Source of the DNA: a virus
Virus record (IMG/VR): IMGVR_UViG_3300028774_000007
Span: 62,001-126,000 of that record
Reading direction: 5' to 3' (one strand)
DNA: 64,000 bases
The position numbers and the translations under genes are program-made. The notes beneath the pieces were generated by a model. That model saw only the letters and a program-made list of their open reading frames with translations, had not been told where the DNA came from and did not search any database. Shown here piece by piece: positions 37,121 to 37,324 of this stretch. How positions within the stretch are numbered: the first letter of the stretch is position 1; every line of letters begins with the position of its first letter.

Positions 37121-37324
37121 ATGCAAACGGTAGGATTCGAACCTACACCTTGAAATTGAAATTTTCATCATTTTTTTTAATTGCTGTTAATGTCTTACCA
37201 CAAAGACATTTTAAATAAATGCGACCATCACACCGCGTTTGCATATTAACAAGACACATTTTAAATTATTAACAGTAATTTATTTTTTAATAGCTGTTAG
37301 TGTCTTTTTATTTTTTAGGGGTCT
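37121..37324 (-). ncRNA. Y-RNA-like structured RNA upstream of the Ro60-type gene
   Basis: The sigma-A promoter at 37,331-37,359 should start transcription near 37,324. The roughly 200-nt transcript has no coding frame. It folds as a 5' stem (AAGACAC 37,306-37,300 with GTGTCTT 37,257-37,251; inside it TAACAG 37,299-37,294 with CTGTTA 37,275-37,270). A tRNA-like body closed by a 9-bp stem (37,244-37,236 with 37,129-37,121) follows. The body is interrupted by an 8-bp hairpin (AATGTCTT/AAGACATT, 37,210-37,189). Bacterial Y RNAs combine a Ro-binding stem with a tRNA-mimicking module and are encoded beside rsr; this locus has the same design. It is also the 5' leader of the TROVE mRNA unless processed. 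Confidence 0.7.
37122..37242 (-). other. tRNA-like domain with perfect T-arm and acceptor stem
   Basis: GCAAACG (37,242-37,236) pairs with CGTTTGC (37,129-37,123), followed by a discriminator A. The D-arm-like hairpin TGTG-ATGGT-CGCA contains GG. The T-arm is GTAGG-TTCGAAT-CCTAC (37,146-37,130), directly abutting the acceptor strand. TGAAA-ATTTCAA-TTTCA (37,167-37,151) has exactly an anticodon-arm geometry (5-bp stem, 7-nt loop with T33; centre TTC). An extra 45 nt between D-arm and anticodon-like arm makes it non-canonical. CCA is not encoded. Either a tRNA mimic or a tRNA gene carrying an insertion; the TROVE neighbour favours a mimic. Confidence 0.7.

What the first reader, a model, noticed from the sequence alone, without database searches (positions are those of the whole stretch)
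37121..37306. Duplicated sequence modules inside the tRNA-like RNA create alternative stems
On the - strand the modules AAGACA(C/T)TAACAG(C)-x-ATTAAAAAA and TTTAAAATGT(GT)CTT each occur twice: once forming the 5' hairpin (37,306-37,251) and once inserted inside the tRNA-like body (37,210-37,175). Each copy can pair with its own partner or with the other copy, because AAGACA/TGTCTT are shared. This suggests the insert arose by duplication and that the RNA may switch between a 5' stem plus split-tRNA fold and a long-range fold enclosing the tRNA 5' half.
Basis: seen in the sequence. Interest (0 to 1): 0.75.

Follow-up and report, generated by a model that had tools for sequence, protein, structure and literature searches.

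The report
Phage tRNA–Y RNA chimera beside Ro60-like gene
The repeated segments are copies of a docking hairpin, probably for a phage version of the Ro60 protein: two stand alone and one is built into a tRNA-shaped RNA, an arrangement found beside the same gene in many other phages and different from the known bacterial 'Y RNAs', which carry a scrambled (circularly permuted) tRNA instead.

Summary
The duplicated modules are real, and a third copy lies at 37101-37045. They do not form a switch. Each is a stem of about 7 bp beside a conserved ACAGCAA-type strand. In 160 related loci this module occurs 312 times in the sense of the neighbouring gene, against 8 antisense and 9 in shuffles. That gene (35500-36996) has a predicted Ro60 fold (Z 21.5, 414 residues). 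The locus is most likely a set of phage Y RNAs with their Ro60-like partner. The tRNA-like RNA (37242-37122) is the unusual part: cellular YrlA is a circularly permuted tRNA inside the Ro stem, whereas here the tRNA is in normal order and the Ro-type hairpin is the permuted element, inserted before the anticodon arm. A covariance model built without the window finds it (56.5 bits) and finds 94 more in 60 loci, with covariation in every helix. Where scoreable, their anticodon loops mostly keep U33 (88%). Cross-paired folds are 11-15 kcal/mol worse and cross-pairing is not conserved. Copies 1 and 2 are unusually alike, so local duplication is plausible. Binding and function are inferred, not shown.

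The parts
37331..37359 (-). sigma-70/sigma-A type promoter-like site TTGACT-17-TATAAT upstream of the RNA cluster
   Evidence: 11 of 12 consensus matches, the best of 6 in the region; the total number found is no more than shuffles give, so this is a consensus match only
37251..37306 (-). Y module 1 (free-standing): stem AAGACAC/GTGTCTT, motif strand TAACAGCTA, G after the 3' strand
   Evidence: fold z -3.4; family consensus
37122..37242 (-). tRNA-Y chimera: tRNA in normal order with a Ro-type hairpin inserted between D arm and anticodon arm
   Evidence: 56.5 bits, E 1.1e-11 with a covariance model built without the window; next hit in the window 13.8 bits. Rfam tRNA 31.1 bits with a wrong 5' half; ARAGORN finds no tRNA
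37236..37242 (-). acceptor stem 5' strand GCAAACG (pairs with 37129-37123; discriminator A 37122, no CCA encoded)
37219..37233 (-). D arm GTGT-GATGGTC-GCAT
37181..37210 (-). Y module 2 (circularly permuted): AATGTCTT-TGTGGT-AAGACATT followed by AACAGCAA
   Evidence: homologous helix 95-96% paired and covarying in relatives
37151..37167 (-). anticodon arm TGAAA-ATTTCAA-TTTCA, anticodon UUC (37160-37158), U33 and A37 present
37130..37146 (-). T arm GTAGG-TTCGAAT-CCTAC
37123..37129 (-). acceptor stem 3' strand CGTTTGC
37045..37101 (-). Y module 3 (free-standing): TAGTCAC-TT-ACAGCAA ... GTGGCTA-G, between the tRNA-Y and the Ro-like gene
   Evidence: weak fold on its own, z -1.4
35500..36996 (-). 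Ro60-like ring protein (DUF2828/DUF7788, vWA with conserved DxSxS, T and D residues)
   Evidence: AF2 pLDDT 89; Foldseek best hit Ro autoantigen 1yvr E 2.8e-6; VIA Z 21.5, rmsd 4.0, 414 residues to 2i91

Best explanation
This is a phage Y-RNA locus. One transcript, probably from the promoter at 37359-37331, carries two simple Ro-docking hairpins (37306-37251 and 37101-37045) and a tRNA-Y chimera (37242-37122), followed by the gene for a Ro60-like ring protein. The protein is expected to grip each hairpin through its stem and the ACAGCAA strand. The chimera then holds a tRNA-shaped body on the ring as its effector or gate module, as YrlA does for bacterial Ro60. tRNA-end enzymes (RNase P and a 3' end nuclease) would release it from the polycistronic RNA, because its ends are a normal acceptor stem. 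Shown: anatomy, conservation, covariation, linkage to the gene, predicted protein fold. Inferred: that the protein binds the hairpins, the processing, and a use in RNA or tRNA quality control or repair during infection.
For: Module with stem: 182 sense vs 3 antisense and 5 shuffled in 80 viral loci; 130 vs 5 and 4 in 80 further loci. Own 5' flank forms the stem at 156 of 276 sites vs 28.75 when flanks are swapped. Covariation of the chimera 0.854 vs 0.244 shuffled and 0.696 vs 0.183 on a second set. Window found by a model that never saw it. Ro60 fold. 674 phage records carry the protein; those of many mycobacteriophages are annotated 'Ro-like RNA binding protein'. A Listeria phage with a Ro-like gene has three very abundant unannotated RNAs within 2 kb upstream of it, for which its authors considered Y RNAs (PMC12282133); relative L015 has three modules there. 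RNA ligase in the same genome and a kinase-like gene next door.
Against: No binding, expression or processing data for this phage. The window's insert and anticodon stem are AT-rich, and module 3 folds only weakly alone. Close protein relatives L026 and L028 show modules but no chimera in the fetched stretch. The genome has no TROVE domain by Pfam, so the Ro60 kinship rests on fold.
Confidence: 0.8

Rival explanations
1. RNA switch: the duplicated modules let the RNA alternate between a 5' hairpin plus split tRNA and a long-range fold.
For: AAGACA/TGTCTT are shared by copies 1 and 2, so cross-pairing is possible in principle.
Against: Alternatives are 11-15 kcal/mol worse with pairing probability 0; cross-pairing is possible for 17.5% of within-locus module pairs vs 9.6% between loci; the own-partner stem covaries.
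Confidence: 0.04
2. A tRNA that carries a removable, intron-like insertion and is spliced to a normal tRNA.
For: Normal order; canonical anticodon loops with U33 in 42 of 48 scoreable relatives vs 32% in shuffles; the genome has an RNA ligase.
Against: The insert is the same module that stands alone beside Ro-like genes and that encloses permuted tRNAs in other phages. Ordinary tRNAs are encoded elsewhere in the genome.
Confidence: 0.07
3. The hairpins are mainly a cis-regulatory leader: the Ro-like protein binds its own 5' UTR (module 3 ends about 48 nt before the start codon) and represses itself.
For: All three lie upstream of the gene on the same strand, module 3 close to the start.
Against: In other phages modules lie downstream of the gene (L014, L018, L022) and chimeras can lie a kilobase or more away; a covarying tRNA body is not needed for this.
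Confidence: 0.08
4. Chance repeats in AT-rich sequence next to a degenerate tRNA.
For: Local AT content is high and module 3 folds weakly.
Against: A model built without the window scores 56.5 bits, next best 13.8; family statistics.
Confidence: 0.01

Closest known systems
YrlA (bacterial Y RNA with tRNA-like domain, partner of Rsr/Ro60)
   Same: Encoded next to a Ro60-fold protein; stem module plus a domain with acceptor, D and T arms. YrlA-type RNAs found here beside bacterial TROVE genes (7 of 9 loci) also carry a small anticodon-like hairpin in most cases.
   Different: YrlA is circularly permuted relative to tRNA, with the Ro stem at the RNA's ends (PMC8394870, PMC11472068; same order seen). 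Here tRNA order is normal, the RNA's ends are the acceptor stem, and the Ro-type hairpin is internal and itself permuted. The stem motif is NNGACNC..ACAGCAA rather than the CCGAGG-type stem of several of the TROVE loci.
Permuted (YrlA-type) RNAs of other phages with the same Ro-like family, e.g. mycobacteriophages Moostard and Faith1, Escherichia phage JH2, Enterococcus phage GVEsP-1
   Same: Same NNGACNC-ACAGCAA module, same protein family, tRNA body with D and T arms.
   Different: tRNA permuted inside the Y stem; the window has the unpermuted form. Locus L063 has both.
Putative Y RNAs of Listeria phage CKA15 (PMC12282133)
   Same: Abundant unannotated RNAs just upstream of a Ro-like gene; the Ro-like protein was found in virions.
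   Different: The authors left the identity open; the relative L015 shows three simple modules in this scan.
Ro60 / Rsr (TROVE) proteins, including Thermus phage phiLo Ro60 (9l5y)
   Same: Ring plus vWA fold: Z 21.5, rmsd 4.0, 414 residues to 2i91; Z 14.7, rmsd 5.1, 393 residues to 9l5y.
   Different: DUF2828/DUF7788 by Pfam; no TROVE hit; 11-15% identity.

Membership tests
Y RNA / YrlA | encoded close to a Ro60 ortholog | tested here: met
   module 3 ends 48 nt before the start codon of the gene; predicted protein has the Ro60 fold
Y RNA / YrlA | Ro-binding stem formed by the RNA's 5' and 3' ends | tested here: inconclusive
   fits the two free-standing hairpins by anatomy; does not fit the tRNA-Y chimera, whose ends are the acceptor stem. 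Transcript ends unknown
Y RNA / YrlA | tRNA-like domain with acceptor, D and T arms | tested here: met
   covarying in relatives
Y RNA / YrlA | tRNA-like domain circularly permuted inside the Y stem | tested here: not met
   normal tRNA order in the window; so it is not filed as a YrlA, only as working like one
Y RNA / YrlA | Y stem sequence as in YrlA beside bacterial TROVE genes (CCGAGG type) | tested here: not met
   window and phage relatives use NNGACNC plus ACAGCAA; several TROVE loci use another stem
Y RNA / YrlA | bound by the Ro60-like protein | not testable with these tools
   needs gel shift or CLIP
tRNA | recognised as a tRNA gene by ARAGORN | tested here: not met
   no tRNA in the window
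tRNA | aminoacylated and used in translation | not testable with these tools
   no CCA encoded; the insert lies between D arm and anticodon arm
Ro60 / TROVE protein | TROVE profile match | tested here: not met
Ro60 / TROVE protein | Ro60 ring plus vWA fold | tested here: met
   (predicted structure)

The most novel reading that the evidence does not exclude
Phages carry a widespread RNA class not described in the literature I could read: tRNAs with a Ro60-docking hairpin built into the anticodon arm and the anticodon loop left intact. They act as bait or sensors for host enzymes that cut tRNA anticodons, held on the phage Ro60 ring and coupled to phage RNA repair. The change between permuted and unpermuted forms, probably through tandem duplication, happened more than once.
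Probability: 0.2. Interest if true: 0.85.

Novelty: new variant of a known kind. Interest (0 to 1): 0.62.

Why it matters
It gives a clear candidate RNA recognition code (stem plus ACAGCAA) for a Ro60-like family present in hundreds of phage records whose role is unknown. It also suggests that nature uses both possible circular permutations of a fusion between a tRNA and a Ro stem. The chimeras can be missed or mis-called by annotation (no tRNA call in the window; 'tRNA-Undet' in Synechococcus phage B23), and they offer a direct test of why Y RNAs imitate tRNAs.

Tried and rejected
RNA switch: rejected on energies and lack of conserved cross-pairing. Rfam family other than tRNA: none at gathering score; the only other hit, Plastid-ycf2 antisense, is far below its cut-off. 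DNA similarity to phages: only a 33-nt match in the tRNA-like 3' part. Sequence search against solved structures: no credible relative; the fold comparison found Ro60. TROVE by Pfam: absent. RtcB: no match in the own genome; T4-type RNA ligase 1: no match, but that search rang nowhere, so it shows nothing. I first thought the kept anticodon hairpin was special to phages; YrlA-type RNAs beside bacterial TROVE genes mostly have one too, so that claim was dropped. The primary papers on bacterial Y RNAs (Chen 2014; the 2020 review; Wang 2018 was not tried) could not be read here, so whether they describe the ACAGCAA module in mycobacteriophages is unknown.

Full report
Observation. Copy 1 runs in the order 5' strand, motif, loop, 3' strand. 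Copy 2 has the 3' strand first, then a 6-nt loop, then the 5' strand and motif; it is a circular permutation of copy 1. A third, more diverged copy at 37101-37045 was missed. Outside the motif copies 1 and 2 agree at 16 of 18 positions, more than any of 413 within-locus module pairs in relatives, so local duplication or conversion is plausible, although both are AT-rich.

Partner gene. The next gene downstream on the same strand (35500-36996) matches DUF2828 and DUF7788. Its predicted structure (pLDDT 89) matches Ro autoantigen 1yvr at Foldseek E 2.8e-6 and the Deinococcus Rsr 2nvo at 9.1e-5; VIA Z is 21.5 (rmsd 4.0, 414 residues) to Ro60 2i91 and 14.7 (rmsd 5.1, 393 residues) to the Ro60 of Thermus phage phiLo. 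674 phage records encode it; those of many mycobacteriophages are annotated as Ro-like RNA-binding protein.

The module is a family. In 80 related viral loci, stems of at least 7 bp joined by 0-3 nt to ACAGCAA occur 182 times in the sense of the Ro-like gene (158 ordinary order, 24 permuted) against 3 antisense and 5 in dinucleotide shuffles, in 65 of the 80 loci. A second set of 80 loci from prokaryote genome contigs gives 130 against 5 and 4. The consensus is roughly NNGACNC-NN-ACAGCAA, and a G often follows the 3' strand; 94 different 5' strands occur among 153 modules. When 5' flanks are swapped between sites, on average only 28.75 of 276 sites keep a stem, against 156 with their own. The two strands therefore change together.

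The tRNA-Y chimera. ARAGORN sees no tRNA, and Rfam's tRNA model matches at 31 bits with a wrong 5' half. Relatives have 110-130-nt tRNA hits, most of which contain the permuted module. Aligning 19 of them, without the window, gives 94.2% paired cells against 63.1% shuffled and a covariation score of 0.854 against 0.244; sliding the partners destroys it. The covariance model from this alignment finds the window RNA at 56.5 bits, E 1.1e-11, with the next window hit at 13.8 bits. It finds 94 chimeras in 60 fetched loci besides the window, including the 19 of the model. The 24 from genome contigs were not used in the model and covary as clearly (0.696 against 0.183), although that alignment is fitted to the structure. 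Sixteen of the 94 have an ordinary module within 60 nt upstream and 31 within 60 nt downstream, against about 3% at random positions, so the window's layout recurs.

Anticodon arm. In 48 of 94 chimeras a 3-bp inner stem with a 7-nt loop is found where expected, against 13% in shuffles. U33 is present in 42 of these 48 against 32%, and U33 with a purine at 37 in 36 of 48 against 18%; related sequences are counted separately, so these are not independent events. In several the insert sits inside the anticodon stem, between its outer and inner pairs (read by eye). The window keeps a full 5-bp arm with anticodon UUC after the insert. The anticodons are varied, so they do not point to one tRNA.

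Relation to known Y RNAs. Published YrlA has a Ro-binding stem made by the RNA ends and D, T and acceptor arms (PMC8394870), and its crystal structure superposes on tRNA with a circular permutation (PMC11472068). I checked this order directly: 7 of 9 bacterial TROVE loci contain T arm, acceptor 3' strand, short loop, acceptor 5' strand, D arm inside a long stem. Other phages with the window's protein family have the same permuted order but with the ACAGCAA stem. The window and 60 other loci have the unpermuted order. On a tree of the Ro-like proteins the two states are interleaved: 5 changes for the unpermuted state by parsimony, at least 2 forced by well-supported branches (the deep branches are weak). 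One simple route, an inference, is tandem duplication of a permuted gene: the stretch from the acceptor 5' strand of the first copy to the acceptor 3' strand of the second is exactly an unpermuted tRNA with a permuted Ro hairpin.

Switch hypothesis. In the 196-nt fold both own-partner stems have probability near 1 and cross-pairs 0; forced cross-pairing costs 11.2 and 14.7 kcal/mol. Cross-pairing is possible for only 17.5% of within-locus module pairs, against 9.6% between loci. The shared AAGACA follows from the family consensus and the similarity of the two copies.

Expression and context. A TTGACT-17-TATAAT match ends 25 nt before module 1. In Listeria phage CKA15 three highly transcribed unannotated regions lie within 2 kb upstream of a Ro-like gene, the strongest early promoters are of the same type, Y RNAs are one explanation the authors offer, and the protein is found in virions (PMC12282133). 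The Listeria phage relative L015 has three modules upstream of its gene; that such modules are the abundant RNAs is my inference. The own genome encodes an RNA ligase about 8 kb away (window 44935-45477) and a kinase-like protein with a weak HD match just upstream, which fits an RNA-repair setting like the bacterial rsr-yrl-rtc operon (PMC7790460).

Verdict. The locus most likely encodes phage Y RNAs for a Ro60-like protein (confidence 0.8). The chimera is a new variant of a known kind. It is not filed as a YrlA because permutation and stem sequence were tested and not met. Binding, processing and function remain to be shown.

Noticed in passing
window 37611-38516 (-): P-loop kinase-like protein (AAA_33, E 2e-16) with a sub-threshold HD match in its C-terminal half, just upstream of the RNA cluster; could be an RNA end-healing enzyme.
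   Followed up: partly
window 44935-45477 (-): RNA ligase (PF09414, E 1.7e-20) on the same strand about 8 kb upstream of the RNA cluster.
   Followed up: partly
G000:C1 13602-19296 (outside the window): Twelve ordinary tRNA genes lie together, far from the tRNA-Y chimera.
   Followed up: no
L016 3863-3972: The Synechococcus phage B23 'tRNA-Undet' of 110 nt just after its Ro-like gene is a tRNA-Y chimera (93.6 bits), so existing annotation mis-calls this class.
   Followed up: yes
L063 5091-5738: One phage locus carries both an unpermuted chimera (5615-5738) and a permuted YrlA-type RNA (5091-5183).
   Followed up: partly
L155: A close DUF2828 Ro-like gene (44% identity) lies on a contig binned as Lokiarchaeota; could be a virus of archaea or a binning error.
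   Followed up: no
window 41557-42279 (-): ATP-grasp protein of the R2K clade (PF18299, E 2.5e-18).
   Followed up: no
L204-L211 (bacterial TROVE loci): YrlA-type RNAs beside bacterial TROVE genes carry a small hairpin with an anticodon-like loop, often CTGTTAA (anticodon GUU).
   Followed up: partly
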